A stretch of 64,000 nt of DNA, taken from the NCBI RefSeq assembly GCF_900188335.1, contig NZ_FZOY01000001.1:558001-622000 (forward strand), given 5' to 3'. Within the stretch, counting starts at the first letter, position 1. Every line of letters starts with the position of its first letter. Source of the stretch: Tropicimonas sediminicola. Lineage in GTDB: Bacteria > Pseudomonadota > Alphaproteobacteria > Rhodobacterales > Rhodobacteraceae. The notes beneath the pieces were generated by a model. The model was given only the letters and a program-made list of their open reading frames with translations. It made no database searches and was not told where the DNA came from. The translations under genes were made by a program, and so were the position numbers. Of the stretch, positions 46,154 to 63,919 are shown in pieces.

Positions 46154-46927
46154 ATGAAGGCCGTTCGCGCATCGACAAAGCGTCAGCAGGCGATCCTGCG
46201 CCATTTGCGCCAGAATGGGCGGGCGATGGTGGAGGAGCTTGCGGCCCTGTTTGACACCACCCCGCAGACCATCCGGAAGGATCTCAACACGCTGGCCGAT
46301 ACCGGCCGGGTGATGCGGTTTCACGGCGGCGCGGCGCTTCTCGCGGGGACGGAATACACCGATTACGAGCTGCGCAAGCAGATCGCCCGCGAGCAGAAGG
46401 AACGAATCGGGCGCGCCACCGCCGCACTGGTGCCCAACAACACCGCGGTCATCATCAATTCCGGCACCACCACGGCCGAGGCCGCGATGCGGCTGGGGCA
46501 GCACGTCGGCCTGAGGGTCGTGACCGACAACGTTGCATTGGCCAACGAAATAAGGCGCTTTCCCGGCATCGAGGTTATGGTTCCCGGAGGGGTGATCCGT
46601 GGCTCCGACGGCACCGTGCTCGGCGAGACAGCGGTGGAATTCATCCGCCAGTTCCGGGCCGACATCGCCATCGTGGGCTGTGCGGCCATCGCCCCGGACG
46701 GCGCGTTGCTCGATTACGACCTGCGCGAGGCGGCAGTGGCGCGGGCTATCCTGGCGGCGTCGAGGCACGCGATACTTGCGGCCGATTCCTCCAAGTTTCG
46801 ACGCATGGCGCCGGTCTGCATCGGGCACCTTCGCCAGATGCGCACGCTGGTGACCGACGCGGGCTGTCCGCAGGAGTTGCGCGCGCTCTGCCGCGAAAAC
46901 GGCGTGGGCTTGACGCTGGCCGGGTGA
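46154..46927 (+). CDS. DeoR-family transcriptional regulator, probable sulfosugar regulator
   Basis: A 257-residue DeoR protein: N-terminal helix-turn-helix (AMVEELAALFDTTPQTIRKDL, residues about 24-44) and a DeoRC sugar-phosphate sensor domain (NNTAVIINSGTTTAEAA, VTDNVALANE, GCAAIAPDGALLDYD). DeoR sensors respond to phosphorylated sugars. E. coli's sulfoquinovose operon is also controlled by a DeoR protein (CsqR/YihW). It stands first in the 18-kb sulfosugar island. A shared motif lies in front of it and the next gene. The ATG at 46154 follows GGGGGAAGGG. Confidence 0.92.
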   Translation: MKAVRASTKRQQAILRHLRQNGRAMVEELAALFDTTPQTIRKDLNTLADTGRVMRFHGGAALLAGTEYTDYELRKQIAREQKERIGRATAALVPNNTAVIINSGTTTAEAAMRLGQHVGLRVVTDNVALANEIRRFPGIEVMVPGGVIRGSDGTVLGETAVEFIRQFRADIAIVGCAAIAPDGALLDYDLREAAVARAILAASRHAILAADSSKFRRMAPVCIGHLRQMRTLVTDAGCPQELRALCRENGVGLTLAG

Positions 46928-47001
46928 TCGGGCCCAAAAGCGCCATGCCGGCCTGTCGACGACGCTTGACAGGATGGTTCGTATGGCGCAGCGTTCGATC
47001 C

Positions 47002-47012
47002 ATTCGAAAGTG
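47002..47012. promoter_or_regulatory. Repeat of DeoR-gene promoter motif before TRAP operon
   Basis: ATTCGAAAGTG, identical to 46123-46133, in the 141-base gap before the TRAP small permease (start 47069). Its flank GTTCGATCC adds a second TTCGA. Likely the operator through which the DeoR protein controls the transporter and catabolic genes. Confidence 0.5.
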
Positions 47013-47068
47013 GAAACGCGCCTCCATGTGGGCGCCGCCACTGCCGAATGCCGGGGAGGAGGAACCCG

Positions 47069-47653
47069 ATGCTGGCAATTCTGGGCCCGCTGAGCTGGGT
47101 CAATACGCACGTGCTGCGACTCGGGCGCAGTCTCGGTTGGATCGCGCTCGCCATCATGGTCGTGGTGATCCTGCTGCAGGTCTTCTTCCGCTACGTTCTC
47201 AACAACGCGCTGGCCTGGCCGGACGAGGCGGCACGCTTCCTGATGCTCTGGATGACCGGGCTGATGGCGCCTTCGGCCTACCGCTGGGGCGGCTTCGTGG
47301 CCATCGACATGCTGCCGCTGGCGCTGCCGCGGGCGGCCGGGCAGATGCTCATGCTGGTGATCCTCGTGCTCTCGCTTCTGGTGCTGCTGGTCGGCGTGAA
47401 GCACGGCTACCAGCACACCTTCGGCTTCGGCGGCCGGTTCGACAGCTCCTCGCTGCGGATCCCGCTGGACTGGGCCGGGCTGGAGACGGTGAAGCTCAAG
47501 CTGAAGTACATGTATGCTTCGCTCTTCGTCTGCATGATCCTGCTGATCTCGGTGAACATCGAGCTGATCCTGCGCAGCGTGGTCCTGCTCTTCGATCCCG
47601 ATGCCGAGCTGCCGCACGATGATGCGCCGGCCATCCTGCAGGCGGCCGACTGA
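47069..47653 (+). CDS. TRAP transporter small permease, DctQ family
   Basis: A 194-residue DctQ-type membrane protein: helix with VILLQVFFRYVLNNALAWPDEAARFLMLWMTGLM, a GGFVAIDMLP loop, then two further helices with an inserted loop (HTFGFGGRFDSSSLRIPLDWAG) that makes it longer than the 159-residue DctQ in this window. It starts at 47069 behind a GGGGAGGAGG ribosome site. Gene order here is Q-M-P, unlike P-Q-M in the first TRAP set. Confidence 0.9.
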   Translation: MLAILGPLSWVNTHVLRLGRSLGWIALAIMVVVILLQVFFRYVLNNALAWPDEAARFLMLWMTGLMAPSAYRWGGFVAIDMLPLALPRAAGQMLMLVILVLSLLVLLVGVKHGYQHTFGFGGRFDSSSLRIPLDWAGLETVKLKLKYMYASLFVCMILLISVNIELILRSVVLLFDPDAELPHDDAPAILQAAD

Positions 47654-49149
47654 TGCTGGCGTGGTTCCTCCCCGTTTTCCTGGTCTTCCTGATGATCGGG
47701 ATGCCCGTGTTCTTCGCGCTGCTGCTGGCGCCGGGGCTGCTCTTGCAGATCAACGGGCAGGAGCGCGACATCGCGCTGCTCTACCGCAACCTCTACAACG
47801 GGATGGACAGCTTCCCGCTGATGGCGCTGCCGTTCTTCGTGCTCGCAGGCGAGCTGATGAACAAGGGCGGCATCACCACCCGGCTCGTCGAGTTCAGCCA
47901 GGCCCTGATGGGCCACCTGCGCGGCGGGCTCGCGCATGTGAACATCCTCAGTTCCATCCTCTTCGCCGGCCTTTCCGGCTCGGCCGTCGCGGATACTTCC
48001 GCGCTCGGCTCCACGCTGATCCCGGCGATGGAGCGGAACGGCTATTCGCGCAGGTTCGCAGCCGCCGTCACCGCGGCGTCCTCGGTCATCGGGCCGATCA
48101 TCCCGCCCTCGGGCATCATGATCATCTATGCCTATGTCATGGGCGAGAGCGTTGCCGCGCTGTTTCTTGCGGGCATCGTGCCCGGCGTCCTCGTCGGGAT
48201 CGGCCTGATGCTGGTGGTGCGCCTGATGGCGGACAAGTACGACCTCCCCAAGGCGGAGCGCATCGTGACGCCGGGCCAGGAGATCTCCCGGCTGGAAAGC
48301 GGCGTCGCCTTCGTGCTGCTGCGGCTGAACCTGGCGGGGCTTCTTGCCGGGATCTTCGCGCTGATCGCGACCTCGCTCGCGACGGTGGGCATCCCGGTGT
48401 CGGTCAACGGCTGGCTGGTCTTCCTCGTCTTCCTCCCGATCGCCCACCTGCTGCTGATGCGCCTGCGCCGGAACGTGTCGCAGGATTTCCGGATCATCTG
48501 CAAGAAGGCGGTGGCGCCGCTGCAGACGCCGATCATCATCCTCGGCGGAATCCTGATCGGCATCTTCACCCCGACCGAGGCCTCGGCCATCGCAGTCGCC
48601 TATGCGCTGATCATCGCTTTCTTCGTGCTGCGCAGCATGACGCTCCGCGATCTGCCGGCGACGATCACCAAGGCGGCGCTGTCCTCCGCGACGGTGCTGC
48701 TCATCGTCGGTGCCGCGGTGTCGTTCAAGACGGTGGTCTCGCTCAGCCACGCGCCCGAGCACATGGCCAGCTTCATCCTGGGCCTGTCCGAGAACCCGTT
48801 GATCCTGCTGTTCCTGATCAACATTCTGCTGTTCATCGTCGGCATGTTCCTCGACGCGGGGCCGGCCATCATCATCCTCGGTCCGATCCTCGGCCCGATC
48901 TTCACCGAGCTCGGCGTGCACCCGGTGCATTTCGCCATCATCATGTCGGTGAACCTGACCGTGGGCCTCGCGACGCCGCCGATGGGGCTGGTGCTCTTCG
49001 TGGCCTCGGCCGTCTCGGGCGAGAAGGTCGAGAGCATCGCGAAGGCGATCCTGCCATTCCTGGCGGTCGAAGTGATCGTGATCTTCCTGATCACCTATTT
49101 CCCCGCCATTTCCATGACGATCCCCCGGCTGACGGGATTCGTGCAATGA
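47653..49149 (+). CDS. TRAP transporter large permease, DctM family
   Basis: A 498-residue DctM subunit with the motifs LYNGMDSFPLMALPFFVLAGELMNKGG, LSGSAVADTSALGSTLIPAM and IIPPSGIMIIYAYVMGES. It is longer than the usual 425-440 because of an insertion around residues 220-270 with two additional hydrophobic stretches, a known long-DctM variant. It overlaps the DctQ stop (TGATG). By position it is the membrane channel for import of sulfoquinovose, its glycosides or a related sulfonate; that substrate is inferred only from the neighbours. Confidence 0.92.
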   Translation: MLAWFLPVFLVFLMIGMPVFFALLLAPGLLLQINGQERDIALLYRNLYNGMDSFPLMALPFFVLAGELMNKGGITTRLVEFSQALMGHLRGGLAHVNILSSILFAGLSGSAVADTSALGSTLIPAMERNGYSRRFAAAVTAASSVIGPIIPPSGIMIIYAYVMGESVAALFLAGIVPGVLVGIGLMLVVRLMADKYDLPKAERIVTPGQEISRLESGVAFVLLRLNLAGLLAGIFALIATSLATVGIPVSVNGWLVFLVFLPIAHLLLMRLRRNVSQDFRIICKKAVAPLQTPIIILGGILIGIFTPTEASAIAVAYALIIAFFVLRSMTLRDLPATITKAALSSATVLLIVGAAVSFKTVVSLSHAPEHMASFILGLSENPLILLFLINILLFIVGMFLDAGPAIIILGPILGPIFTELGVHPVHFAIIMSVNLTVGLATPPMGLVLFVASAVSGEKVESIAKAILPFLAVEVIVIFLITYFPAISMTIPRLTGFVQ

Positions 49150-49178: not shown

Positions 49179-50237
49179 ATGTTCCGAACATCCATAAGGA
49201 CCCTCGCGGCCGCGGCCATCCTGGCCGGGTCGACCGTCGCGGCGACCGCGGCGGACTACACGCTGCGGGCGACCGCGAACTCGAACGAGAACGACGAGGA
49301 TTACGACGGCCTCGTGGTCTTCAAGAACTACGTCGAAAGCGCCTCCAACGGGGCCATCGAGGTCGAGCTGTTCATCGGCACCCAGCTCTGCGGCAACGGT
49401 GCGGAGTGCCTGCAGGGCGTGGCCGACGGCTCGATCGACATCTACATCTCGACCTCGGGCGGCGCTGCCGGGATCTTCCCCTACGTTCAGGTGCTCGACC
49501 TTCCCTACCTGATGACCTCGGACCGGATCGCCGAGGCCGTGTTGCAGGGCGATTTCACCCGCAAGATGCGCGAGATGGCATTGGCCGACAGCGACAACAC
49601 GATCCGGCTCATGACCATCGGCAACACCGGCGGCTGGCGCAACTTCGCCAATACCCAGCGGCGGGTGCAGGGCCCCGATGACCTCGCCGGGCTCAAGATC
49701 CGCACCGTGGTCGCCGACCTGCCGCAGGAGCTTGTGCGCGCGCTCGGCGCGTCGCCGACGCCGATCCCGTGGCCGGAGCTCTTCACCTCGCTGCAGACCG
49801 GGGTGGTGGAAGGCTCCAAGAACGGCATCACCGACATTATGGGCATGAAGTTCCCCGATGCCGGCCTGCAGTACATGACCCTCGATGGCCACGCCTACAT
49901 GGGCGCGCTCTGGTGGATGAACAACGCCAAGTTCATGGAGATGCCCGACGAGCTCAAGATGGTCGTGAACGACGGCTTCTACGCGCTCCAGCAGGCCACC
50001 TTCGCCTCGCCCAAGCGCAAGTCGATCCAGGCCTACGAGGATTTCGTGGCCGGGGGCGGCGATCTCTACGTGCCGACGCCCGAGGAGAAGGCCGCGTTCA
50101 AGGAGGCCGCCGCGCCGGTCTACGACTGGTTCAAGGCCAATGTCGACGGCGGCGAGGAGATCTTCACCGCGCTCACCGAGGCCGTGGCCGAGGTCGAGGC
50201 GGAGATCGCCGAAGCCAATGCGATGGACCTGAAGTAA
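49179..50237 (+). CDS. TRAP transporter solute-binding protein, DctP family
   Basis: A 352-residue periplasmic DctP protein with a signal peptide (MFRTSIRTLAAAAILAGS..., cleavage near ATAA, residue 25). Features include SNGAIEVELFIGTQLCGNGAECLQG, with a cysteine pair (CGNGAEC) that could form a disulfide, LAGLKIRTV with the ligand-pocket Arg, and PWPELFTSLQTGVVEG. The pocket Arg normally binds a carboxylate and could accept a sulfonate. The start at 49179 has an AGGGAGGAA site; an in-frame upstream ATG at 49146 overlapping the DctM stop is less likely because it precedes the signal peptide. Confidence 0.92.
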   Translation: MFRTSIRTLAAAAILAGSTVAATAADYTLRATANSNENDEDYDGLVVFKNYVESASNGAIEVELFIGTQLCGNGAECLQGVADGSIDIYISTSGGAAGIFPYVQVLDLPYLMTSDRIAEAVLQGDFTRKMREMALADSDNTIRLMTIGNTGGWRNFANTQRRVQGPDDLAGLKIRTVVADLPQELVRALGASPTPIPWPELFTSLQTGVVEGSKNGITDIMGMKFPDAGLQYMTLDGHAYMGALWWMNNAKFMEMPDELKMVVNDGFYALQQATFASPKRKSIQAYEDFVAGGGDLYVPTPEEKAAFKEAAAPVYDWFKANVDGGEEIFTALTEAVAEVEAEIAEANAMDLK

Positions 50238-50338: not shown

Positions 50339-50443
50339 ATGTCCTATCCCCTTGCGCGCCAACGTCTCCGGGCAGCGCCCCGGTTGCGGCCGGGCATCGT
50401 GTTGCCACGGACGGGCGGCCACGGCCGGAAGGCGGCGGCATGA
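50339..50443 (+). CDS. Possible 34-residue Arg-rich leader ORF
   Basis: A short open frame (MSYPLARQRLRAAPRLRP...) whose stop overlaps the kinase ATG as ATGA, giving potential translational coupling. It is Arg/Pro/Ala-rich and resembles no family I know. The only nearby ribosome-site candidate is CAAGG. It may be chance; the kinase's own ribosome site (CGGAAGGCGG) lies inside it. Confidence 0.22.
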   Translation: MSYPLARQRLRAAPRLRPGIVLPRTGGHGRKAAA

Positions 50444-51324
50444 CCGAGGTTCTCGTGCTCGGGATGGCGGTGGTGGATTTCGTGCTCTCGATGGAGCGCT
50501 TTCCGACCGCGGCCGCCAAGTACCGCGCGGACTCGGCCGAGATCGTGGGCGGGGGCGTGGCGGCCAATGCCGCGGTGGCGATCGCCCGGCTCGGCGGCCA
50601 GGCGACGCTGGCGACGCGGGTCGGGGACGATCCGCTGGCCGACCTGGTGCTGGGAGAGCTGGCCGGGGAGGGCGTTTGCATCGACCACGTGCATCGCGCG
50701 GCGGGCGGTCGCTCCTCCTTCTCCTCGATCTATATCGACGCCGCAGGCGAGCGGCAGATCATGAATTTCCGTGGTTCCGGGCTGACCGAAACGACCGACT
50801 GGATCGCGGCCGCGCCTCGGGCGCAGGCGGTGCTGGTGGACACGCGATGGACGGCCGGCGCGGCGGCGGCACTGGCCTCCGCCCGTGCATGGCGCGTGCC
50901 GGGCATCGTCGACGGCGAGGCGCCGATCGATCTCGCGCTGCTGGAGGCTGCGAGCCACGTTGCGCTGTCCCGGCCGGGACTGGCCTCGCTCGAACCCGGC
51001 GAGGATGCGGCCACGGCGCTGGCCCGTCTGGCCGCGCGAATCCCGGGCTGGGCCTGCGTGACGGACGGCGAGAACGGTGTCTGGTGGACCGAGGGCGCGG
51101 AAATCCGGCATCTCCCGGCGTTCCGTGTGGCGGTGAAGGACACGCTCGGCGCGGGCGATGTCTGGCACGGCGCCTTCGCCCTGGCGCTCGCCGAGGGGCA
51201 GGGGGAGCCGGAGGCGATCCGTTTCGCCAGCGCGGCCGCCGCCCTCAAATGCATGACCTTTGGTGGCCGCTCGGGATCGCCCGACCGCGCTGCCGTGATG
51301 ACCTTCCTCAAGGAGACGGGATGA
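50440..51324 (+). CDS. PfkB-family sugar kinase, probable 6-deoxy-6-sulfofructose kinase (YihV-like)
   Basis: A 294-residue ribokinase-family enzyme: GGGVAANAAVAIARLGG (37-53), RVGDD, and catalytic Asp240 in DTLGAGDVWHG. It resembles E. coli YihV through most of its length (LVDTRW versus LADVRW, SRPGLASL versus SEPGLARL). Lys27, Asn109 and Arg136 fall where, as I recall, YihV contacts the sulfonate. It should phosphorylate sulfofructose at O1. The next gene is an aldolase of the YihT/LacD type and shares an ATGA overlap. A tagatose-6-phosphate kinase role is the alternative but does not explain the downstream sulfonate genes. Confidence 0.8.
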   Translation: MTEVLVLGMAVVDFVLSMERFPTAAAKYRADSAEIVGGGVAANAAVAIARLGGQATLATRVGDDPLADLVLGELAGEGVCIDHVHRAAGGRSSFSSIYIDAAGERQIMNFRGSGLTETTDWIAAAPRAQAVLVDTRWTAGAAAALASARAWRVPGIVDGEAPIDLALLEAASHVALSRPGLASLEPGEDAATALARLAARIPGWACVTDGENGVWWTEGAEIRHLPAFRVAVKDTLGAGDVWHGAFALALAEGQGEPEAIRFASAAAALKCMTFGGRSGSPDRAAVMTFLKETG

Positions 51325-52349
51325 TGGAACTGACACCGGGCAAGCTCTGGGGCCTGCGTCGCATGGCCGATGCGAACGGCATCTTCAAGATGACCGCGGT
51401 GGACCAGCGCCCGCCGATCAAGGGTCCGATCGCCGCGCATCTCGGGCTCGAGCAGGCGCCGTGGGAGGAGGTCGCCCGCTTCAAGGGCCTGTTGATCGAG
51501 ACCCTGCAGGCGCAGTCCACCGCCATGCTGCTCGACCCGCATTACGCGATTCCGTACGGCATCGGGGCGCTCTCGCCCACCAAGGGGCTGGTCGTGACGC
51601 TGGAGGACTCGGTCTTTGCCGAGACGCCGGGCGGGCGGCTCTCGTCGGATATCGACGACTGGTCGGTGGCCAAGATCAAGCGCATGAGCGGCGACGCGGT
51701 GAAGGTGCTGGCGTGGTATCGCCCGGATGCCGACGCCGAGGTCGTGCAGAAGCAGAACGACTACGTGAAGCGCATCGGCGAGGAATGCGCGCGCTACGAC
51801 ATTCCCTTCCTGCTGGAGATGCTGGTCTATCCGCTGGCGGCCGATGCGCACCAGACGAAGGACTACGTCGAAATGAAGGGCAAGAAGGCCGATGACGTGC
51901 TGGCGACCGTCGAGGAATTCGCCAAGCCCGACTATGGCGTCGACGTCTTCAAGCTGGAAAGCCCGGTGAATGCCGCCGACGCCGACGGTTCGGCCGAGGT
52001 GCAGGCGGTCTTCGACGAGATGGGCCGGCTGGCCGGCCGCCCGTGGGTGATGCTCTCCGCCGGGGCTGGCAAGGCCGAGTTCCGCAAGGTGCTGGAGCAT
52101 GCCTTCGCGGCGGGGGCGAGCGGGTTCCTCGCCGGACGCGCGATCTGGCTCGATGCCTTCCGGGCCTACCCGGACTGGGCCGCCATCGAGGCGGGGCTTC
52201 GCGGGGGTGCCGTCGATTACATGTCCGACATCTCCGCGCTGGCCGACGCGCATGCCGCCGACTGGTCGAAACATGCCTGCTACGGCGCGGGCGGCGCGCG
52301 GTTCTCCCCGGCGGATGCCAGTTTCCGCCATGGCTACGCATCCATTTGA
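51321..52349 (+). CDS. LacD/YihT-family class I aldolase, probable sulfofructose-1-phosphate aldolase
   Basis: A 342-residue TIM-barrel aldolase of the tagatose-bisphosphate/sulfofructosephosphate family. Marks are FKMTAVDQRPPIKGP near the N-terminus, GLVVTLED, KVLAWYRPDADAE and the Schiff-base Lys211 in GVDVFKLESP. It would cleave sulfofructose-1-phosphate into dihydroxyacetone phosphate and (S)-sulfolactaldehyde. Two adjacent ATGs (51321, 51324) are possible starts; the first overlaps the kinase stop. The next gene overlaps its end by 20 bases or follows it by 10, depending on that gene's start. Confidence 0.82.
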   Translation: MMELTPGKLWGLRRMADANGIFKMTAVDQRPPIKGPIAAHLGLEQAPWEEVARFKGLLIETLQAQSTAMLLDPHYAIPYGIGALSPTKGLVVTLEDSVFAETPGGRLSSDIDDWSVAKIKRMSGDAVKVLAWYRPDADAEVVQKQNDYVKRIGEECARYDIPFLLEMLVYPLAADAHQTKDYVEMKGKKADDVLATVEEFAKPDYGVDVFKLESPVNAADADGSAEVQAVFDEMGRLAGRPWVMLSAGAGKAEFRKVLEHAFAAGASGFLAGRAIWLDAFRAYPDWAAIEAGLRGGAVDYMSDISALADAHAADWSKHACYGAGGARFSPADASFRHGYASI

Positions 52350-53746: not shown

Positions 53747-54838
53747 ATGACATTGCGATACGGGCTGATCGGATCGGGCATGATGGGGCAGGAGCATATC
53801 CGGAACCTCAACATCCTCGGCGGTTGCGAGGTGACGGCCATCGCCGACCCGGACGAGGGGATGCGGGTGCTCTCGGTCGAGACCTCGGGCGGAACGGCAC
53901 GGGCCTTCAACGACTACAGGGAGATGCTCTCGGCCGACATCTGCGACGTGCTGATGATCATCTCGCCCAACGACACCCACCACCGGATCATGCTGGACGT
54001 CATGGACACCGGCAAGCCGATCCTCTGCGAGAAGCCGCTCTGCACCACATCCGACCATTGCCGGGAACTGGTGTCCAAGGCGCAGGGCCGAGCGGCGCCG
54101 ATCTGGGTGGCGATGGAATACCGCTACATGCCGCCCATGCAGCGGCTTCTGGCCGACCTCGCCGAAGGTCGGATCGGGCGGCCGCAGATGATGTCGATTC
54201 GCGAGCACCGCTTCCCCTTCCTGCCCAAGGTTGGCGACTGGAACCGGTTCAACGAGCGCACCGGGGGCACGCTGGTCGAGAAATGCTGCCACTTCTGGGA
54301 TCTGATGCGCTTCACCCTGCAGAGTGATCCGGTGCGCGTCTACGCAAGCGGGGCGATGGATGTGAACCACCGCGACGAGACCTATGACGGGCGCACACCT
54401 GACATCATCGACAACGCCTTTGTCACCATCGACTTCGCCAACGGCACGCGGGGCATGCTGGATCTCTGCATGTTCTCCGAAGGCGCCTACTGGCAGGAGA
54501 AGATCTGCGTCACCGGCGACCAGGCGCGGATCGAGGCCAAGGTGCCCGGTCCCTCGCGCTTCTCGCCGGACGGCAAGGAGCGGGACGCCGAGGTCGTGAT
54601 CTCGGAGCGGGCCACGCGGAAGGTCACGCGCGATGTCGTCCACGTTCCCAACGAGGTGCTGCAGGCCGGCGACCACCACGGTTCCACCTACTTCCAGCAC
54701 GAACGCTTCCGCGATCTGGTGCTCGCGGGGCGGGGCGAGCCGGAGGTCACGCTGACCGACGGGCTATGGTCGGTGATCGTGGGCGAGGCGGCGGAGCACT
54801 CGGCCCGCACCGGCCAGGCCATCGAGGTGTCGCTGTGA
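53747..54838 (+). CDS. Gfo/Idh/MocA-family protein, candidate NAD-dependent sulfoquinovosidase (GH188 type)
   Basis: A 363-residue protein. The N-terminal Rossmann domain has GLIGSGMMGQEHIRNL (6-21) and the CEKPLCTT motif of the family. The C-terminal domain has WNRFNERTGGTLVEKCCHFWDLMR. Usually such proteins are dehydrogenases. However, one branch (SqgA, GH188), found with sulfo-EMP2 genes, uses NAD+ transiently to hydrolyse sulfoquinovosides through oxidation-elimination. Location between the isomerase and epimerase genes, with no other glycosidase in the window, makes that the best guess. No signal peptide, so glycosides must be imported first. An ordinary sugar dehydrogenase is the alternative. 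Confidence 0.72.
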   Translation: MTLRYGLIGSGMMGQEHIRNLNILGGCEVTAIADPDEGMRVLSVETSGGTARAFNDYREMLSADICDVLMIISPNDTHHRIMLDVMDTGKPILCEKPLCTTSDHCRELVSKAQGRAAPIWVAMEYRYMPPMQRLLADLAEGRIGRPQMMSIREHRFPFLPKVGDWNRFNERTGGTLVEKCCHFWDLMRFTLQSDPVRVYASGAMDVNHRDETYDGRTPDIIDNAFVTIDFANGTRGMLDLCMFSEGAYWQEKICVTGDQARIEAKVPGPSRFSPDGKERDAEVVISERATRKVTRDVVHVPNEVLQAGDHHGSTYFQHERFRDLVLAGRGEPEVTLTDGLWSVIVGEAAEHSARTGQAIEVSL

Positions 54839-57295: not shown

Positions 57296-58219
57296 ATGAT
57301 CCTGATCACCGAGTTCATGGACGAAGACGCCGTTGCGTCCCTCAAGTCCGCCGTGCCTGCGGAATACCAGCCCGACCTGGCGGACCGGCAGGGCGATATC
57401 CCGGGCATGATGGCAGGCATTCGGGCGCTGATCGTCCGCAACCGGACGCAGGTCACCGAGGATCTGCTCGCCGCCGCGCCGGACCTGAAGGTCGTCGGCC
57501 GGCTTGGCGTGGGGCTCGACAACATCGACCTCGCGGCCTGCAAGGCGAAGGGCGTCGAGGTCATTCCCGCGACCGGCGCCAACAACCTGAGCGTCGCGGA
57601 ATACGTGATCAGCAATGCCCTCGTGCTGCTGCGCGGCGCCTATCAGGCCAATGCGCGGATGTTGGCGGGCGAGTGGCCGCGCATGGATTGCGCGGGCCGC
57701 GAGGTGCATGGCAAGACGCTCGGCCTGATCGGCTTCGGCGCGATCGCCCAGGAGACGGCAAAGCTGGCGCAGGGCCTCGGCATGCAGATCTGCGCCACCG
57801 ATCCCTACGTGCTCGCCGACAGCCCGGCCTGGACCGGCGTGATGCGGACCGATCTTTCCGGCGTGCTCCGGGCCGCGGACGTGATCAGCCTGCACGTGCC
57901 GCTCGTCGACGCCACCCGGCACATGGTCAATGCGCAGACGCTGGCAGCGATGAAACCCGGCGCCGTCCTGATCAACGCCGCCCGTGGCGGGGTGGTGGAC
58001 GAGGACGCGCTGGTCGCGGCGCTGCGGGAGGGGAAGATCGCCGGCGCGGCGCTCGACGTCTTCGAGACCGAGCCGCTGACCGCGGAAGCGGCCGCGAAAT
58101 TCGAGGGTCTGGGCAACCTGATCCTGACGCCGCACATTGCCGGCGTCACGGAGGAATCCAACGTCCGCGTCAGCACCATGATTGCCGAAATGGTGCTCGA
58201 CCGGCTGAACAAGTCCTGA
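57296..58219 (+). CDS. slcC: (S)-sulfolactate dehydrogenase
   Basis: A 307-residue D-isomer-specific 2-hydroxyacid dehydrogenase. It has the NAD motif GLIGFGAIAQETA (143-155), catalytic Arg230 (NAARGGVVDE), the Glu of FETEP and His280 (TPHIAG). SlcC enzymes of sulfolactate degraders belong to this family and oxidise (S)-sulfolactate to sulfopyruvate. The gene is followed directly by comD and comE, which consume sulfopyruvate. The S stereochemistry agrees with the product expected from the upstream aldolase and aldehyde dehydrogenase. Confidence 0.87.
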   Translation: MILITEFMDEDAVASLKSAVPAEYQPDLADRQGDIPGMMAGIRALIVRNRTQVTEDLLAAAPDLKVVGRLGVGLDNIDLAACKAKGVEVIPATGANNLSVAEYVISNALVLLRGAYQANARMLAGEWPRMDCAGREVHGKTLGLIGFGAIAQETAKLAQGLGMQICATDPYVLADSPAWTGVMRTDLSGVLRAADVISLHVPLVDATRHMVNAQTLAAMKPGAVLINAARGGVVDEDALVAALREGKIAGAALDVFETEPLTAEAAAKFEGLGNLILTPHIAGVTEESNVRVSTMIAEMVLDRLNKS

Positions 58220-58231
58220 GGAGGAGGCGAC

Positions 58232-58738
58232 ATGGCCAGGGAGATCGACAGGCAGATCATCGGGGATCTGCGCGACAACGGGATTGACTTCGTCACCAGC
58301 GTGCCGTGCAAGCAGCTCGCCGGGGTGATCGAACTGGTCGACCAGACCGACGGCATCCTGCACGTCCCATGCAACAAGGAGGACGAGGGCATGGGCCTGT
58401 GCGCCGGTGCCTACATGGGCGGGATGCGGCCGCTGATCATGATGCAGAACACTGCGCTCGGCGTGACGCTCAATTCGCTGGCGACGCTGATCCAGTTCTA
58501 CCAGATCCCGCTGCCGATGCTGATCTCCTATCGCGGCGAGGTGGGCGAGCCGGTGGCCTGCCAGGTCGAGATGGCGCTGCACACCAAGGCGCTGCTCGCC
58601 CAGTTCCACATCCCAACCTATCACTTCCACAAGGCCGAGGACGTCGCCGAACTGCCCGGCATCCTGCAGCACACCCAGATGTGCTCCAAGCCCACCGCCA
58701 TCCTGACCGACGCCAGCTTCTGGGGGAGCGCGAAATGA
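58232..58738 (+). CDS. comD: Sulfopyruvate decarboxylase, alpha subunit
   Basis: A 168-residue protein matching the Pyr-domain half of a split thiamine-diphosphate enzyme. It has TSVPCKQLAGVIE near residue 22, the cofactor-activating Glu in NKEDEGMGLCAGAYMGG and QNTALGVTLNSLATL. With ComE it converts sulfopyruvate to sulfoacetaldehyde and CO2. A GAGGAGG ribosome site precedes the ATG; the stop overlaps comE by four bases, as expected for subunits made in equal amounts. Confidence 0.92.
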   Translation: MAREIDRQIIGDLRDNGIDFVTSVPCKQLAGVIELVDQTDGILHVPCNKEDEGMGLCAGAYMGGMRPLIMMQNTALGVTLNSLATLIQFYQIPLPMLISYRGEVGEPVACQVEMALHTKALLAQFHIPTYHFHKAEDVAELPGILQHTQMCSKPTAILTDASFWGSAK

Positions 58739-59289
58739 TCCGTTACGAGCTTCTGGACCTGCTGAAACCGACCCTCACCGAGGAACTCGTGGTCTGCAAC
58801 ATCGGCTCGCCAAGCCAGGAACTGCATGCGCTCGACGACCAGCCGTCGAACTTCTACATGCTGGGCACGATGGGGCTGGCCTCGTCCATCGGTCTCGGCC
58901 TCGCGATGGCGACCGACAAGAAGGTAATCGCCATCGACGGCGACGGCTCGGTGCTGACCAACCTCGGCACCCTCGCCACCATCGGCAACAATCCTTGCGA
59001 CAACTTCATCCTGCTGATCGTGGACAACGGCAGTTACGGTTCCACCGGAGACCAGCCGACCTATACCGGCGGCCGGACCTCGCTGGCCAAGGTCGCGGAG
59101 GCCTGCGGGTGCGAGAACGTGGTGGAGTGCTCTGCCGAGGAGACGCCGGAGGCGCTGCGTGCCGCTCTGGATGCCAACCGGATGACCGTGATCGTCTCGA
59201 AATGCGAGAGCGGCAACGTGAAATGCCCGGTCATCACGATGAACCCGATCACGATCCGCGAGCGTTTCATGCGCGAGGTCGCGCGCTAG
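58735..59289 (+). CDS. comE: Sulfopyruvate decarboxylase, beta subunit
   Basis: A 184-residue thiamine-diphosphate-binding half: GDGSVLTNLGTLATIGNN (69-86) followed by VDNGSYGSTGDQPT (97-110) is the Mg/ThDP motif, and MLGTMGLASSIGLGLA is the usual preceding helix. It pairs with ComD. In coenzyme M synthesis the same activity is used by methanogens, but in this catabolic context it drains sulfolactate carbon to sulfoacetaldehyde. It is followed by an 87-base gap before soeA. Confidence 0.92.
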   Translation: MIRYELLDLLKPTLTEELVVCNIGSPSQELHALDDQPSNFYMLGTMGLASSIGLGLAMATDKKVIAIDGDGSVLTNLGTLATIGNNPCDNFILLIVDNGSYGSTGDQPTYTGGRTSLAKVAEACGCENVVECSAEETPEALRAALDANRMTVIVSKCESGNVKCPVITMNPITIRERFMREVAR

Positions 59290-59376: not shown

Positions 59377-62232
59377 ATGACGCGTGAGCCGACAATCGAA
59401 CTCAACCAGCCGGTCGGCGACCGGGTCGCCAAGACGACGTGCTACATGTGCGCCTGCCGTTGCGGGATCGACGTGCACATCCGGGACGGCAAGGTCCGCT
59501 ACATCGAGGGCAACCGCGACCATCCGGTGAACAGGGGGGTGATCTGCGGCAAGGGCGCCTCGGGCATCATGCAGCACTATTCCCCGGCGCGGCTGCGGGC
59601 GCCGATGAAGCGCGTCGGGCCGCGCGGCTCCGGCCTGTTCGAGGAAATCACCTGGGGCGAGGCGCTGGAGACGGCCACGAAATGGCTGAAGGACGTCCGC
59701 CGCACCGACCCGCGCAAGCTCGCCTTTTTCACCGGCCGGGACCAGAGCCAGTCGCTGACCGGCTTCTGGGCCATGCAGTACGGCACGCCGAACTTCGCTG
59801 CGCACGGCGGGTTCTGCTCGGTCAACATGGCGGCGGGCGGGCTTTATACCTTTGGCGGCGCTTTCTGGGAGTTCGGCGACCCGGACTGGGAGCATACCAA
59901 GTACCTGATGCTGTTCGGCGTCGCGGAGGATCACGCCAGCAATCCGATCAAGGCCGGGATCGGCCAGCTCAAGAAACGGCAGGCCAAGGTGCTGTCGGTG
60001 AACCCGGTGCGGACGGGCTATTCGGCCGTGGCCGACGAATGGGTGGGGATCCGCCCCGGAACCGACGGTCTGTTCGTCGGCGCGCTGATCCACGAGCTGT
60101 TCCGGACGCAACAGGTCGATCTGGATTACCTACTGCGCTACACCAACGCTGCCTGGCTGGTGATCGACGCTCCCGGCGAGGCCGACGACGGGCTCTTCGC
60201 GCGCAACGCGGAGGGGCGGGCGCTGGTGTTCGACACCGCGGGCAATGCATTGGCCAGCAGCATGGACGTGGCGGCGAAGCCCGCGTTGACCGGGCGCCGG
60301 GAGCTGCCGGACGGGCGCTCCGCGCGGCCGGTGTTCGAACTGATGGCCGAACGCTTCCTGTCGGACGACTACACCCCCGACGCCGTGGCCGGGCAGACCG
60401 GCGTTCCCGCCGACCAGATCCGCCGGATCGCCGCGGAGCTGGCCGAGGTGGCGTTTCGCGAGGAGATCGTGATCGAGCGGGAATGGACGGACTGGGCCGG
60501 CCGCAAGCACGACAGGATGATCGGCCGGCCGGTGTCGATGCACGCGATGCGCGGGATCTCGGCCCATTCCAACGGCTTCCAGACCTGCCGGATGATCCAT
60601 GTCCTGCAGATCCTGCTGGGCACGATCGATTGCCCCGGCGGGTTCCGCTACAAGCCGCCCTATCCCAAGCAGACCCCGCCGAACCTTCTGCCGCACGGCG
60701 CCACGGGCGACATCCGGCCCGAAATGCCGCTCGGCGGCCCGCACCTTGGCTTCCCGCACGGGCCTGCGCATCTGCTGCTCGACGCGGAGGGCAACCCGAG
60801 CCGGCTCGACAAGGCGTTCTCCTGGGATGCCCCGATGTCGGCGCACGGGCTGATGCACATGGTGATCAACAACGCGGCCAAGCGCGATCCCTACGGCATC
60901 GACGTGCTGTTCCTATACATGGCGAACATGGCCTGGAACTCGTCGATGAACGTGCCGGGCACGCTCGACGCGCTGACCGCGACCGACGAGAACGGCGACT
61001 ACGTGATCCCGAAGATCATCTACTCCGATGCCTATTACTCGGAGACCGTCCCCTTCGCGGACCTGATCCTGCCGGACACGACCTACCTGGAGCGGCACGA
61101 CTGCATCTCGATGCTGGACCGCCCGATTTCCGATCCGGATTTCATCGCCGACTCGATCCGCCACCCGGTGGTTCAGCCCGACCGCGACGTCCGCGGCTTC
61201 CAGGACGTGCTGATCGATCTCGGCGCGCGGATCGGCCTGCCGGCCTTCACCAACGAGGACGGCTCGCCCAAGTACCCCGGCGGCTATCCCGACTACATGG
61301 TCCACCACCAGCGCAAGCCGGGGATCGGGCCGCTCGCCGGCTGGCGGGGAGAGGACGGCAGCGAATTCGGCGTCGGCACACCCAACGACGACCAGATCCA
61401 GCGCTACAAGGAGAACGGCGCGTTCTTCGAGCATCGTGTGGCGCCGGAACATGCCTATTTCAAGCACGCGAACCGGGGCTACCTCGACTGGGGGATCGAG
61501 AAGGGCATCCGCCTGTCTCCGGAGCCGACGATCTTCCAGCTCTACAGCGAGCCGTTGCAACGCTTCCGCCTCGCCGCGCGCGGGCATGGCGAGCGGCAGC
61601 CGCCCGAGCGGGCGCGCGACCGGGTGGAACGCTATTTCGATCCGCTGCCGTTCTGGTATCCGCCCTTCGAAGGCAGCCAGGTGGACGAGGCGTCCTTTCC
61701 GCTCCATGCGATCACCCAGCGGCCGATGCACATGTATCATTCCTGGGGGAGCCAGAACGCCTGGCTGCGCCAGATCACGGCGGCGAACCGTCTCTATATT
61801 CACCGGAGCGTCGGCGAGGCCATTGGCGCTGCTGACGACGACTGGGTCTGGCTCGCCTCGCATCTCAGCCGCATCAAGTGCCAGGTGCGCCTGATGGACG
61901 GGGTGAACCCTCACACCGTCTGGACCTGGAACGCCATCGGCAAGCGCCGCGGCGCCTGGGGCCTGTCGGAGGACGCGCCCGAGAGCCGGGACGGATTCCT
62001 GCTCAATCACCTGATCGGTGAGCTGCTGCCGGAGCGGGAAGGGGGCTACCGGTTCTCCAACTCCGACCCGATCACCGGGCAGGCCGCGTGGTTCGACCTG
62101 CGGGTCAGGATCGAGAAGGCCGAGGCGTGCGACCATGTGGAGCCCTATTTCGAGCCATTGGGAACGGGCACGCAGCCGGCGTCGCCCGGCAAGCTCGCTT
62201 TCGGTGCCGAGTTCAGGGGGAAAGCCCGATGA
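59377..62232 (+). CDS. soeA: Sulfite dehydrogenase (quinone) molybdoprotein SoeA
   Basis: A 951-residue DMSO-reductase-family catalytic subunit. The N-terminal [4Fe-4S] ligands are Cys22, Cys25, Cys29 and Cys57 (CYMCACRC and VICGKG), and Cys147 in HGGFCSVNM is the likely molybdenum ligand. There is no Tat signal, so unlike polysulfide reductase the subunit faces the cytoplasm, as SoeA does. The FTGRDQSQSLTGFWA segment and the soeABC gene order match roseobacter SoeA. It should oxidise cytoplasmic sulfite to sulfate and pass electrons to SoeB. Position after comE fits removal of sulfite freed from sulfoacetaldehyde. Confidence 0.9.
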   Translation: MTREPTIELNQPVGDRVAKTTCYMCACRCGIDVHIRDGKVRYIEGNRDHPVNRGVICGKGASGIMQHYSPARLRAPMKRVGPRGSGLFEEITWGEALETATKWLKDVRRTDPRKLAFFTGRDQSQSLTGFWAMQYGTPNFAAHGGFCSVNMAAGGLYTFGGAFWEFGDPDWEHTKYLMLFGVAEDHASNPIKAGIGQLKKRQAKVLSVNPVRTGYSAVADEWVGIRPGTDGLFVGALIHELFRTQQVDLDYLLRYTNAAWLVIDAPGEADDGLFARNAEGRALVFDTAGNALASSMDVAAKPALTGRRELPDGRSARPVFELMAERFLSDDYTPDAVAGQTGVPADQIRRIAAELAEVAFREEIVIEREWTDWAGRKHDRMIGRPVSMHAMRGISAHSNGFQTCRMIHVLQILLGTIDCPGGFRYKPPYPKQTPPNLLPHGATGDIRPEMPLGGPHLGFPHGPAHLLLDAEGNPSRLDKAFSWDAPMSAHGLMHMVINNAAKRDPYGIDVLFLYMANMAWNSSMNVPGTLDALTATDENGDYVIPKIIYSDAYYSETVPFADLILPDTTYLERHDCISMLDRPISDPDFIADSIRHPVVQPDRDVRGFQDVLIDLGARIGLPAFTNEDGSPKYPGGYPDYMVHHQRKPGIGPLAGWRGEDGSEFGVGTPNDDQIQRYKENGAFFEHRVAPEHAYFKHANRGYLDWGIEKGIRLSPEPTIFQLYSEPLQRFRLAARGHGERQPPERARDRVERYFDPLPFWYPPFEGSQVDEASFPLHAITQRPMHMYHSWGSQNAWLRQITAANRLYIHRSVGEAIGAADDDWVWLASHLSRIKCQVRLMDGVNPHTVWTWNAIGKRRGAWGLSEDAPESRDGFLLNHLIGELLPEREGGYRFSNSDPITGQAAWFDLRVRIEKAEACDHVEPYFEPLGTGTQPASPGKLAFGAEFRGKAR

Positions 62233-62972
62233 CCACGTTGCCCCCTGCCACAGACAAGAAGCTCGGGCTGGTGATCGACCTCGACATCTGCGTCGGCTGC
62301 CAGGCCTGCGCCACGAGTTGCAAGGAGTGGAACACCGGCGGCTATTCGGCGCCGCTGTCCGACCACGACCCTTACGGCGCGGACCCGAGCGGCGCCTGGC
62401 TCAACCGGATCCATTCCTACGAGTTCGGCGAAGGCGCGGCGGCGAAGACGGTCCATTTCCCGCGCTCCTGCCTGCATTGCGAGACGCCGGATTGCGTGAC
62501 GGTCTGCCCGACGGGGGCCTCCTACAAGCGCGTCGAAGACGGCATCGTCCTGGTCAACCCGGACACCTGTATCGGCTGCAAGCTGTGCTCCTGGGCCTGT
62601 CCCTACGGGGCGCGCGAATATGATCACGACGATGGCGTGATGAAGAAATGCACGCTCTGCGTGGACCGGATCTACAACGAGACGCTGGCCGAGGAGGACC
62701 GTATCCCGGCCTGCGTCAGGGCCTGTCCGACAGGGGCGCGGGCCTTTGGCGACCTTGGCGACCCCGACAGCGATGTGTCGCGCTCCGTCGCCGCGCGGGA
62801 CGGATTCAACCTGCTCGACGAGTTCGGCTACCGGCCCGTCAACAAGTACCTGCCGCCGCGCAAGACCTCGGTGCCGCTGGACCTGTCCGAGACGCCGCCG
62901 CCGGAAACGGCCACCGGGACCACGGCCATCGAGAAACTCTTCGCGTGGGTCGACCGCACGCTGTCATCCTGA
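62229..62972 (+). CDS. soeB: Sulfite dehydrogenase Fe-S subunit SoeB
   Basis: A 247-residue DmsB/NrfC-type ferredoxin with four cysteine clusters: CVGCQACATSC, CLHCETPDCVTVCP, CIGCKLCSWACP and CTLC...CVRACP, enough for four [4Fe-4S] centres. It wires SoeA to the membrane anchor SoeC. The start at 62229 overlaps the soeA stop (ATGA). No signal peptide, in agreement with a cytoplasmic complex. Confidence 0.92.
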   Translation: MTTLPPATDKKLGLVIDLDICVGCQACATSCKEWNTGGYSAPLSDHDPYGADPSGAWLNRIHSYEFGEGAAAKTVHFPRSCLHCETPDCVTVCPTGASYKRVEDGIVLVNPDTCIGCKLCSWACPYGAREYDHDDGVMKKCTLCVDRIYNETLAEEDRIPACVRACPTGARAFGDLGDPDSDVSRSVAARDGFNLLDEFGYRPVNKYLPPRKTSVPLDLSETPPPETATGTTAIEKLFAWVDRTLSS

Positions 62973-62980
62973 GGGAAAAG

Positions 62981-63919
62981 ATGCATCCAGCCTATTCCGT
63001 CATCTTCTTCACCGTGGCCTCCGGCGCAGGCTATGGGCTGCTGTTCTGGCTCTCCCTCGCCGCGCTGGTCGGCGCAATGCCCGGAGGCCGCTGGCTGATG
63101 GTCGCGGGGATGCTGCTGGCGCTGGCGCTGGTGACCTTTGGCTTGCTGTCCTCCGCCAGGCACCTCGGGCACCCGGAGCGGGCGCTCGGCGCCTTCTCGC
63201 AATGGCGGAGTTCCTGGCTCTCGCGCGAGGCGGTCGCGGCGGCGGCGACCTATGTGCCGGCGGGCCTGCTGCTGCTCCTCGCCGCCTTCGGGGGCGCCTC
63301 CGCCGTAGCGTCGTTCGCCGCGCTGCTCACCGCCCTGGGCGCCGCCGCGACGGTCTATTGTACGGCGCGGATCTATGCCTCTCTTCGCACGATCCGGCAC
63401 TGGAACCGGAAGGACGTGGTCTGGATCTACCTGGCGCTGGCACTGGCATCCGGCGGATTGCTCTTCTGCCTCCTGCTGGCGCTCGGCGGCCACGCGCTCG
63501 GGATCGCCGGGCCGCTGTCGCTGGCCGCGCTCCTTGCCGCGGCCTGGCTCAAGGCTCGCTATTGGGCGGCGGTGGATGCCGACCCCGGCGCCTATACCGT
63601 GGAGATGGCGCTTGGCATGCCCGACCTCGGCACGCCGCGCCCGCTGGACCCTCCGCACACGATGCCGAACTTCGTGATGCGCGAGATGGGCTATTCGGTC
63701 GGCCGCAAGCATGCGGTGAAACTTCGGCGTGGGGTGCTGCTGGCGCTCTTCGCCGTGCCCGCCGTCCTGCTGGCCCTGAGCCTGATCACCGGCCTGTCGG
63801 CGCCGCTCCTCGTGCTGGGCGTGCTCTCTGCCGCTGGCGGCCTGCTCGTGGAGCGCTGGCTTTTCTTCGCAGAGGCCGAACATGTCTCGCAGCTCTACTA
63901 CGGGCTGCAACGGGCCTGA
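62981..63919 (+). CDS. soeC: Sulfite dehydrogenase membrane anchor SoeC (DmsC family)
   Basis: A 312-residue DmsC-like membrane protein with about eight hydrophobic helices beginning HPAYSVIFFTVASGAGYGLLFW. LLSSARHLGHPERALGAFSQWRSSWLSRE is characteristic of the DmsC/SoeC family. It anchors SoeAB to the inner membrane and hands electrons to quinone. Eight bases separate it from soeB, and GAGGG precedes the ATG. A strong hairpin follows the stop, ending the island. Confidence 0.9.
   Translation: MHPAYSVIFFTVASGAGYGLLFWLSLAALVGAMPGGRWLMVAGMLLALALVTFGLLSSARHLGHPERALGAFSQWRSSWLSREAVAAAATYVPAGLLLLLAAFGGASAVASFAALLTALGAAATVYCTARIYASLRTIRHWNRKDVVWIYLALALASGGLLFCLLLALGGHALGIAGPLSLAALLAAAWLKARYWAAVDADPGAYTVEMALGMPDLGTPRPLDPPHTMPNFVMREMGYSVGRKHAVKLRRGVLLALFAVPAVLLALSLITGLSAPLLVLGVLSAAGGLLVERWLFFAEAEHVSQLYYGLQRA

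What the first reader, a model, noticed from the sequence alone, without database searches (positions are those of the whole stretch)
46154..63919. One contiguous island predicted to turn sulfoquinovosides into sulfate
Seen: fifteen genes on one strand, mostly with four-base overlaps. They encode a DeoR regulator, TRAP importer, YihV-like kinase, YihT/LacD-like aldolase, FucI-fold isomerase, Gfo/Idh/MocA protein, epimerase, GabD-like dehydrogenase, SlcC, ComD, ComE and SoeABC. Known: each family occurs in sulfo-EMP or sulfo-EMP2 sulfoglycolysis (kinase, aldolase, isomerase, mutarotase), in sulfolactate degradation (SlcC, ComDE) or in sulfite oxidation (SoeABC). Inference: this organism joins upper sulfoglycolysis to C3 sulfonate mineralisation in a single operon-like unit, instead of excreting sulfolactate or dihydroxypropanesulfonate for partners to finish. 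Apart from the sulfite-releasing enzyme, every step has a candidate.
Basis: partly seen in the sequence, partly recalled or inferred. Interest (0 to 1): 0.92.

Follow-up and report, generated by a model that had tools for sequence, protein, structure and literature searches.

The report
Plant sulfosugar-to-sulfate gene island
A marine bacterium of the Tropicimonas kind carries, side by side, genes that appear able to take up sulfoquinovose (the abundant sulfur sugar of plants and algae) and break it down all the way to sulfate, a job usually described as shared between several microbes.

Summary
The island is real: sixteen intact same-strand genes at 46154-63919. The 'Gfo/Idh/MocA' protein is a GH188 NAD+-dependent sulfoquinovosidase: eight of nine published active-site positions match. 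The isomerase's only NCBIfam hit is sulfoquinovose isomerase SftI (1.8e-74, under cut-off); the kinase's best solved match is YihV. Best reading: SQ glycosides enter by a TRAP importer, pass by sulfo-EMP to sulfolactate, then SlcC, ComDE and Xsc to sulfite, then SoeABC to sulfate. Of 32 family genomes with the isomerase, 30 carry ComE (16) or SuyB (15), only one both. Actibacterium pelagium has the whole route in about 27 kb. 'Extended' sulfoglycolysis is known, so this is a new variant, but it goes against the view that sulfoglycolysis and C-S cleavage rarely share a cell. Caveats: no activity tested; sulfofucose not excluded; several enzymes assigned by family and context only; soeABC and xsc may belong to the taurine unit; statistics lack phylogenetic correction.

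The parts
46154..46927 (+). DeoR/GlpR-family regulator
   Evidence: DeoRC 6.7e-43 and HTH_DeoR; found in 46 of 80 relatives' loci
46123..46133 (+). operator-like site ATTCGAAAGTG upstream of deoR
   Evidence: exact 11-mer twice in the window, at these two promoters; with up to 1 mismatch 2 found, 0.50 expected, and 10 of 100 shuffles reach 2; core heptamer upstream of deoR in 12 of 38 loci (window included) vs 0.7 expected in base shuffles
47002..47012 (+). same operator-like site upstream of dctQ
   Evidence: core heptamer in 11 of 38 deoR-dctQ gaps (window included) vs 0.65 expected in base shuffles
47069..47653 (+). TRAP small permease DctQ
   Evidence: PF04290 6e-19
47653..49149 (+). TRAP large permease DctM
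   Evidence: TIGR00786 409 bits over cut-off 268
49179..50237 (+). TRAP solute-binding protein DctP, candidate sulfoquinovoside binder
   Evidence: PF03480 7e-53; an isethionate-binding DctP is second among PDB matches, 3e-30; 74-85% identical DctP in seven of ten loci fetched around MauG-like genes outside the isomerase clusters, two of which were shown to carry an alkanesulfonate-monooxygenase-like gene
50440..51324 (+). PfkB-family kinase, predicted sulfofructose 1-kinase
   Evidence: best PDB match sulfofructose kinase 7ag6 (sequence as E. coli YihV), 190.8 bits vs next 156.5; YihV K27/N109/R138/D244 equivalents kept in the window and in 68/61/68/68 of 68 relatives (the role of these positions is recalled)
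51321..52349 (+). class I LacD-type aldolase, predicted sulfofructose-1-phosphate aldolase
   Evidence: NF009498 327.5 bits over cut-off 184; 8tnf 6.5e-91, sulfofructosephosphate aldolase 7ag1 1.8e-17; lysine K211 aligned with YihT K193 in the window and 70 of 70 relatives
52360..53742 (+). AraA/FucI-superfamily isomerase, predicted SQ-sulfofructose isomerase
   Evidence: only NCBIfam hit at 1e-10 or better is NF048012 SftI sulfoquinovose isomerase 1.8e-74, 251 bits, below cut-off 700; Pfam Fucose_iso_C 32.1 bits over 29.3; AlphaFold model pLDDT 89.4 matches L-arabinose and L-fucose isomerases at TM 0.5-0.6, rmsd about 23
53747..54838 (+). SqgA, GH188 NAD+-dependent sulfoquinovosidase
   Evidence: 8qc3 2.4e-114, 8qc2 6.9e-112; K96,Y125,R155,L159,K161,E178,H182,H310 match ArSqgA K107,Y136,R166,L170,K172,E189,H193,H321; identical in 68 of 68 aligned relatives
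54835..55845 (+). aldose-1-epimerase, predicted SQ mutarotase
   Evidence: PF01263 5.5e-77
55842..57293 (+). GabD/SlaB-type aldehyde dehydrogenase, predicted sulfolactaldehyde dehydrogenase
   Evidence: TIGR01780 SSADH 647.4 over 646.35; best PDB match an SSADH (3jz4, 594 bits), 8c54 sixth (545.9 bits; a sulfolactaldehyde dehydrogenase by recall); substrate not separable by sequence
57296..58219 (+). D-2-hydroxyacid dehydrogenase, predicted (S)-sulfolactate dehydrogenase SlcC
   Evidence: PGDH-like 2.2e-86, under cut-off; next to ComDE or SuyB/ComC in relatives; the name rests on context and recall
58232..58738 (+). sulfopyruvate decarboxylase alpha, ComD
   Evidence: TIGR03845 155.4 over 147.95
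58735..59289 (+). sulfopyruvate decarboxylase beta, ComE
   Evidence: TIGR03846 231.2 over 221.5
59377..62232 (+). SoeA, molybdopterin subunit of predicted sulfite dehydrogenase
   Evidence: best NCBIfam hit thiosulfate reductase PhsA 199.5 bits, far under its cut-off 694; PDB best a thiosulfate reductase; no twin-arginine motif; homologue in 31 of 32 isomerase-bearing genomes
62229..62972 (+). SoeB, ferredoxin-type subunit
   Evidence: NF045797 DsrO 7.4e-39, under cut-off; 16 cysteines
62981..63919 (+). SoeC, DmsC-type membrane anchor
   Evidence: PF04976 1.2e-19
63920..64000 (.). convergent intergenic stretch with a GC-rich inverted repeat (seen by eye); xsc (minus strand, 64016-65791 in continued window numbering) has its stop codon 16 bp past the window
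   Evidence: Xsc TIGR03457 938.8 bits over 676.4

Best explanation
The island lets one aerobic alphaproteobacterium mineralise sulfoquinovose glycosides alone. A TRAP transporter imports sulfoquinovosyl glycerol or SQ. SqgA (GH188, NAD+) frees SQ and a mutarotase equilibrates its anomers. A FucI/AraA-type isomerase gives sulfofructose, a YihV-type kinase gives sulfofructose-1-phosphate, and a class I LacD-type aldolase gives DHAP plus (S)-sulfolactaldehyde. A GabD-type enzyme oxidises this to (S)-sulfolactate. SlcC makes 3-sulfopyruvate, ComDE decarboxylates it to sulfoacetaldehyde, Xsc (just outside the window, convergent) releases sulfite and acetyl phosphate, and SoeABC oxidises sulfite to sulfate with electrons passing to quinone. 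A DeoR-family repressor probably controls its own gene and the TRAP-led operon. Shown by sequence: gene content, order, the GH188 residues, and the co-occurrence pattern. Inferred: every catalytic step, the imported substrate, co-expression, and flux through Xsc.
For: Each step has an intact candidate gene. Eight of nine published GH188 positions match. The only NCBIfam hit of the isomerase is SQ isomerase. The kinase's best PDB match is YihV. The xsc stop is 96 bp past the soeC stop and the genome has five pta-family matches. The module is conserved: in 80 loci kinase 70, SqgA 69, aldolase 69, SlcC 55, ComE 19, SuyB 8. Of 32 isomerase-bearing family genomes 16 have ComE, all 16 with Xsc; 15 have SuyB; the 4 without Xsc (at 1e-150) all have SuyB; SoeA in 31. 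ComE-or-SuyB: 28 of 29 isomerase-bearing genomes against 109 of 316 others.
Against: No growth, expression or enzyme data. SSADH, SlcC and SoeABC are assigned by family and context; sequence does not fix their substrates. The isomerase is under the SftI cut-off and the aldolase is nearer tagatose-bisphosphate aldolases than YihT. xsc belongs to a taurine-type cluster on the other strand, so co-induction on SQ is not given. soeABC is next to the sugar operon in few relatives: 2 of 80 loci held SoeB/SoeC, and G197 has it a little further off. The same-genus genome G007 has xsc and SoeA on other contigs. ComE is adjacent in only 19 of 80 loci.
Confidence: 0.77

Rival explanations
1. The substrate is another 6-sulfohexose, above all sulfofucose (6-deoxy-6-sulfo-D-galactose), isomerised to sulfotagatose and cleaved as sulfotagatose-1-phosphate; the lower pathway is unchanged.
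For: The isomerase model resembles AraA/FucI enzymes and the aldolase falls in the tagatose-bisphosphate aldolase family. A Paracoccus strain degrades sulfofucose completely, by an ED route (PMC12421959, passages and part of the Discussion read).
Against: SqgA keeps the GH188 SQ contacts that I could place, including the C4-OH glutamate. The isomerase's only NCBIfam hit is an SQ isomerase. GH31 sulfoquinovosidases are reported inactive on a sulfofucoside.
Confidence: 0.09
2. Two independent neighbours: the sugar genes make sulfolactate for export, while soeABC, xsc and tau genes form a taurine/sulfolactate unit that came to lie beside them by chance.
For: xsc is in a taurine-type cluster; soeABC lies within about 4 kb of xsc in 9 of 20 chosen xsc neighbourhoods, not beside a sugar operon; there is an 87-bp break before soeA.
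Against: slcC-comDE are inside the sugar operon here, and ComE is in 19 of 80 loci. ComE or SuyB occur in 30 of 32 isomerase-bearing genomes. Export would leave slcC and comDE in the operon without purpose. Joint use of xsc and soe by both routes remains likely.
Confidence: 0.1
3. The upper genes serve a non-sulfonated ketose or pentose, not a sulfosugar.
For: LacD-type aldolase and GabD-type dehydrogenase are broad families.
Against: GH188 residues, YihV as nearest kinase, SftI hit, frequent company of sulfonate genes.
Confidence: 0.03

Closest known systems
Sulfo-EMP pathway (E. coli yih; Arthrobacter AK01) and the EMP/EMP2 hybrids reported for Proteobacteria and Actinobacteria (PMC12890257)
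   Same: isomerase, PfkB kinase, aldolase order; YihV-type kinase; class I aldolase; SLA dehydrogenase and GH188 SqgA as in Arthrobacter AK01
   Different: isomerase is of the FucI/AraA type (SftI-like), not YihS; aldolase is LacD-type rather than YihT; TRAP importer; predicted to carry on to sulfite and sulfate instead of excreting sulfolactate
'Extended' sulfoglycolysis (sulfo-TAL + SuyAB in Thermotogae/Chloroflexi, PMC9594981) and tandem sulfofucolysis-SuyAB in Paracoccus wurundjeri Merri (PMC12421959)
   Same: a C-C cleaving sulfosugar pathway and a C-S cleaving module in one organism
   Different: here sulfo-EMP chemistry, C-S cleavage through ComDE and Xsc rather than SuyAB, and a predicted sulfite dehydrogenase beside it
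Bifurcated sulfolactate degradation of Roseovarius nubinhibens ISM (recalled; title seen in a reference list)
   Same: sulfolactate to sulfopyruvate, ComDE to sulfoacetaldehyde, Xsc
   Different: there sulfolactate is the imported substrate; here it would be made in the cell from SQ
Roseobacter sulfo-SMO SQ clusters
   Same: GH188 enzyme and, in the loci seen here, a related DctQMP importer with a MauG-like gene
   Different: oxygenolytic desulfonation instead of sulfoglycolysis

Membership tests
Sulfo-EMP sulfoglycolysis | SQ-sulfofructose isomerase | tested here: inconclusive
   SftI model 1.8e-74 but 251 bits under the 700 cut-off; AraA/FucI-like model
Sulfo-EMP sulfoglycolysis | sulfofructose 1-kinase of YihV type | tested here: met
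   YihV is best PDB match; K27, N109, R138, D244 positions kept in the window (roles recalled; 2rbc, a sugar kinase, keeps the K and R too)
Sulfo-EMP sulfoglycolysis | SFP aldolase | tested here: inconclusive
   class I aldolase with the aligned lysine but LacD-like, not YihT-like
Sulfo-EMP sulfoglycolysis | growth on SQ with sulfolactaldehyde as intermediate | not testable with these tools
   needs culture and enzymes
GH188 NAD+-dependent sulfoquinovosidase | homology to SqgA structures | tested here: met
   8qc3 2.4e-114
GH188 NAD+-dependent sulfoquinovosidase | sulfonate and sugar contacts and catalytic histidines of ArSqgA | tested here: met
   8 of 9 positions named in PMC10755693; the ninth, Glu163, I could not place with certainty (aligned window residues there are R152 and E153)
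ComDE sulfopyruvate decarboxylase | score over both subunit cut-offs | tested here: met
   TIGR03845 and TIGR03846
Xsc sulfoacetaldehyde acetyltransferase | equivalog model over cut-off | tested here: met
   938.8 bits over 676.4; 0 of 14 control genomes over the cut-off
SoeABC sulfite dehydrogenase | three subunits (A Mo, B Fe-S, C DmsC-type anchor), cytoplasmic A | tested here: met
   this build is shared with other complexes of the superfamily, and no Soe model was in the libraries' hits
SoeABC sulfite dehydrogenase | sulfite as substrate | not testable with these tools
   only linkage to xsc (9 of 20 chosen neighbourhoods) speaks for it
SlcC (S)-sulfolactate dehydrogenase | distinct sequence signature or activity | tested here: inconclusive
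   PGDH-like only; context supports

The most novel reading that the evidence does not exclude
In marine alphaproteobacteria this sulfo-EMP type is not a cross-feeding pathway. Nearly every carrier pairs it with one of two interchangeable C-S cleaving modules (SlcC-ComDE-Xsc or SlcC-ComC-SuyAB) and a sulfite oxidase, so these cells mineralise sulfoquinovose alone. They take it up by a TRAP importer that often has a MauG-like di-haem companion, a pair that is also found beside SQ-monooxygenase-type clusters.
Probability: 0.5. Interest if true: 0.8.

Novelty: new variant of a known kind. Interest (0 to 1): 0.64.

Why it matters
SQ is estimated at about 10 billion tons a year, and recent papers treat sulfoglycolysis and C-S cleavage as jobs of different organisms: coexistence 'in a single bacterium is unusual' (PMC12421959); 'not a solo process' (PMC13372026). 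A common, often clustered single-cell route to sulfate in Rhodobacteraceae and relatives would change how SQ sulfur flow in the sea is read from genomes, and it gives named strains (for example Actibacterium pelagium JN33, Aliiruegeria lutimaris, Shimia haliotis) in which to test it.

Tried and rejected
Tagatose or other plain-sugar role: rejected on the GH188 residues and sulfonate company. Direct sulfolactate lyase in this genome: no SuyB homologue at 1e-100, so the Xsc route is the one seen. PDB sequence search with the isomerase found nothing useful, hence the model and fold search. The plasmid search gave only distant isomerases (38% or less). Promoter scan: no sigma-70 site. The frame first taken as the MauG-like protein (L059, used as query) has an upstream stretch that is not part of it; one search shows a Sel1-type protein there on the other strand. 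The recount with a clean query gave 52 of 80 loci, 51 of them with dctP on the same strand within 4 kb, and the same 17 of 31. The Pta queries were longest frames of three fetched pieces and probably wrong frames, so that screen says nothing about pta. The five pta-family matches were not sorted into true Pta and fusion enzymes. I did not build trees of kinase and aldolase. Fisher tests ignore phylogeny; assumes that the 345 genomes are handles G000-G344, which fits the listing but was not printed. The Xsc of G074 is weak (3.2e-192, others mostly 0). Only 80 of 238 relatives were kept, and the named and unnamed sets overlap (L086 lies on the contig of G007, L133 on that of G197, by length and position). 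The 20 xsc and 10 MauG neighbourhoods were chosen by me from the listed hits. I could not read the 2023 Roseobacter SQ paper and the 2021 YihV/YihT structure paper (not held).
Full report
What is there. The window is bases 558001-622000 of contig C17 (914,591 bases) in a 5.17-Mb draft genome. From 46154 to 63919 sixteen intact genes run on one strand: deoR, dctQ, dctM, dctP, kinase, aldolase, isomerase, sqgA, mutarotase, gabD/slaB, slcC, comD, comE, soeA, soeB, soeC. Five of fifteen junctions are four-base overlaps; the larger gaps are 141, 202 and 87 bp.

The missing enzyme. Xsc lies at 64016-65791 in continued numbering, on the minus strand, its stop 96 bp from the soeC stop. It scores 938.8 bits against a cut-off of 676.4, which none of 14 control genomes reaches. 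Beyond it follow a MocR-type regulator (over the cut-off of the PdxR model; I call it TauR-like from context and recall), an aminotransferase that I name taurine-pyruvate aminotransferase from context and recall, and divergent TauABC-like genes that hit the taurine transporter models under their cut-offs. So xsc sits in a taurine-type cluster. The genome also has five matches to the phosphotransacetylase family.

The overlooked glycosidase. The 'Gfo/Idh/MocA' protein is GH188. Its best solved matches are the two SqgA enzymes of PMC10755693 (8qc3, 2.4e-114; 8qc2, 6.9e-112) and 8zn9. Eight of the nine positions named for the ArSqgA complexes match: K96, Y125, R155, L159, K161, E178, H182 and H310, for K107, Y136, R166, L170, K172, E189, H193 and H321. 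They are identical in 68 of 68 relatives aligned. The ninth, Glu163, I could not place with certainty. I read three of four parts of that paper. The island therefore most likely starts from SQ glycosides rather than only from free SQ.

The sugar enzymes. The isomerase has one NCBIfam match at 1e-10 or better, sulfoquinovose isomerase SftI (1.8e-74, 251 bits, below the cut-off of 700), and a confident model (pLDDT 89.4) whose best solved matches are L-arabinose and L-fucose isomerases (TM about 0.5-0.6, 10-15% identity, rmsd about 23, so the superfamily is clear but the domain arrangement differs). The kinase is nearest to E. coli YihV (7ag6, 190.8 bits; next 156.5, a sugar kinase 2rbc). The positions of YihV K27, N109 and R138, which I recall as sulfonate contacts, are K, N and R in the window and in 68, 61 and 68 of 68 relatives; 2rbc also keeps the K and the R, so those two are not exclusive. 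The aldolase is class I and LacD-like (327.5 bits over cut-off 184), with YihT far behind. The dehydrogenase at 55842 passes the SSADH cut-off narrowly (647.4 over 646.35), so sequence cannot tell sulfolactaldehyde from succinic semialdehyde.

The sulfonate enzymes. ComD and ComE pass their sulfopyruvate decarboxylase cut-offs (155.4 over 147.95; 231.2 over 221.5). SlcC is only PGDH-like by sequence. SoeABC has the expected three parts, with no twin-arginine motif on SoeA, but its best-scoring models are thiosulfate reductase and other relatives, under their cut-offs.

Spread and pairing. In 394 genomes of the family, 46 have an isomerase match at 1e-20, of which 32 (own included) are below 1e-130. 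The neighbourhoods of the 31 others were read: kinase in 31, aldolase in 25, SqgA in 25, SlcC in 24, ComE in 7, SuyB in 2 (several stretches are cut by contig ends). A scan of named genomes found 238 relatives, of which 80 were kept: Tropicimonas, Aliiruegeria, Shimia, Maritalea, Hoeflea, Nitratireductor and others. In these 80 loci: kinase 70, SqgA 69, aldolase 69, DctP 56, SlcC 55, ComE 19, SuyB 8, SoeB 2; no locus held both ComD/E and SuyB. The two sets overlap. Genome-wide, among the 32 carriers ComE (1e-30) is in 16 and SuyB (1e-100) in 15; both only in G197; neither in G171 and in the 77%-complete G359. All 16 ComE carriers have Xsc (1e-150); the four carriers without Xsc have SuyB. SoeA is in 31 of 32. 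In the 345-genome sample, ComE or SuyB occurs in 28 of 29 carriers against 109 of 316 non-carriers (p 1.8e-11, no correction for relatedness). Alone, ComE is 16 of 32 against 68 of 362 and Xsc 28 of 32 against 222 of 362 (p 1.6e-4 and 3.4e-3).

A second complete island. Its SoeA and SoeB are 79% and 81% identical to the window's. G197 also has SuyB elsewhere. Thus the physical union arose, or was kept, in another genus in a different order.

Against a single operon. In twenty xsc neighbourhoods that I chose, tauR-like genes accompany xsc in 17 and soeABC lies near in 9. In G007 the sugar operon, xsc and SoeA are on three contigs. So soeABC and xsc are probably shared parts that in this genome lie beside the sugar operon, and their expression on SQ is not assured. 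In G171 (Litoreibacter roseus by contig) the sugar operon is followed by soeCBA-xsc-tauR-tpa/tauABC, with a histidinol-dehydrogenase-family gene between and no SlcC-ComDE.

Control. ATTCGAAAGTG occurs exactly twice in the window, upstream of deoR and of dctQ; by count alone this is weak (10 of 100 shuffles reach two at one mismatch). Its core heptamer appears in 11 of 38 deoR-dctQ gaps and upstream of 12 of 38 deoR genes (window included, loci related), where base shuffles give 0.65 and 0.7. This fits a DeoR operator but is not proof.

Comparison with print. The 2022 review (PMC9594981, passages) describes 'extended' sulfoglycolysis, for example sulfo-TAL with SuyAB. The 2026 review (PMC12890257, sections 3.1 and 4) lists sulfo-EMP products as DHPS or sulfolactate, mentions hybrid EMP1/2 enzyme sets in Proteobacteria, and notes that some degraders also carry genes for further steps. 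PMC12421959 (passages and the first part of the Discussion) shows a Paracoccus that degrades sulfofucose completely and calls such coexistence unusual. PMC13372026 (passages and Discussion) assigns sulfo-SMO to Roseobacters. My searches listed no paper whose title, abstract start or read passages describe sulfo-EMP coupled to ComDE-Xsc-SoeABC; but key papers are not held, and the legend of PMC10755693 Figure 5 names Jannaschia and other Rhodobacteraceae clusters that I could not see. Hence: a new variant of a known kind.

Verdict. Probability about 0.77 that the island and its neighbour xsc mineralise SQ to sulfate as described; about 0.09 for another sulfohexose.

Noticed in passing
L054-L084 and L086-L165 (between dctP and the kinase); window 50238-50439: A MauG/CCP-type protein with two CxxCH motifs (PF03150) lies next to dctP, same strand, within 4 kb, in 51 of 80 named loci, and was seen in 17 of 31 unnamed ones. 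The window has only a 202-bp gap there, with no similarity to the G007 stretch at 0.01. Against a strict SQ link: 216 of 394 family genomes have a homologue at 1e-100, the window's genome too, elsewhere.
   Followed up: partly
L188, L189, L191, L192, L194, L195: DctQMP + MauG with a GH188-like gene (47-50% identical) in 6 of 10 MauG contexts that I chose outside the isomerase clusters; in the two checked (L189, L194) an alkanesulfonate-monooxygenase-like gene is present (240-246 bits, under its cut-off 518). This suggests a shared SQ uptake module of the sulfo-SMO and sulfo-EMP types. One paper search for MauG with sulfoquinovose listed three papers, none relevant by title.
   Followed up: partly
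L080, L081: Operon variants with SuyB and ComC-like genes in place of ComDE, in genomes without Xsc at 1e-150.
   Followed up: yes
L063, L073, L074, L079, L083, L084 and, among others, L098, L100, L104, L105, L111: Isomerase and kinase (often with SlcC, SlaB) without the LacD-type aldolase detected nearby; another aldolase or pathway may serve there.
   Followed up: no
L075:17575-18879: A histidinol-dehydrogenase-family gene (over the hisD cut-off; HpsN-like by recall) follows the sugar operon in Litoreibacter roseus, which has neither ComE nor SuyB at the limits used: a possible third lower route.
   Followed up: no
window 18672-28827: 2-Aminoethylphosphonate degradation genes phnW and phnX (over cut-off) beside a PehA-like ester hydrolase and an ABC transporter whose binding protein is of the oligopeptide/nickel type.
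   Followed up: no
window 43585-46026: An 813-aa protein with FAD-oxidoreductase and GcvT-type parts (dimethylglycine/sarcosine dehydrogenase type by recall) directly upstream of deoR.
   Followed up: no
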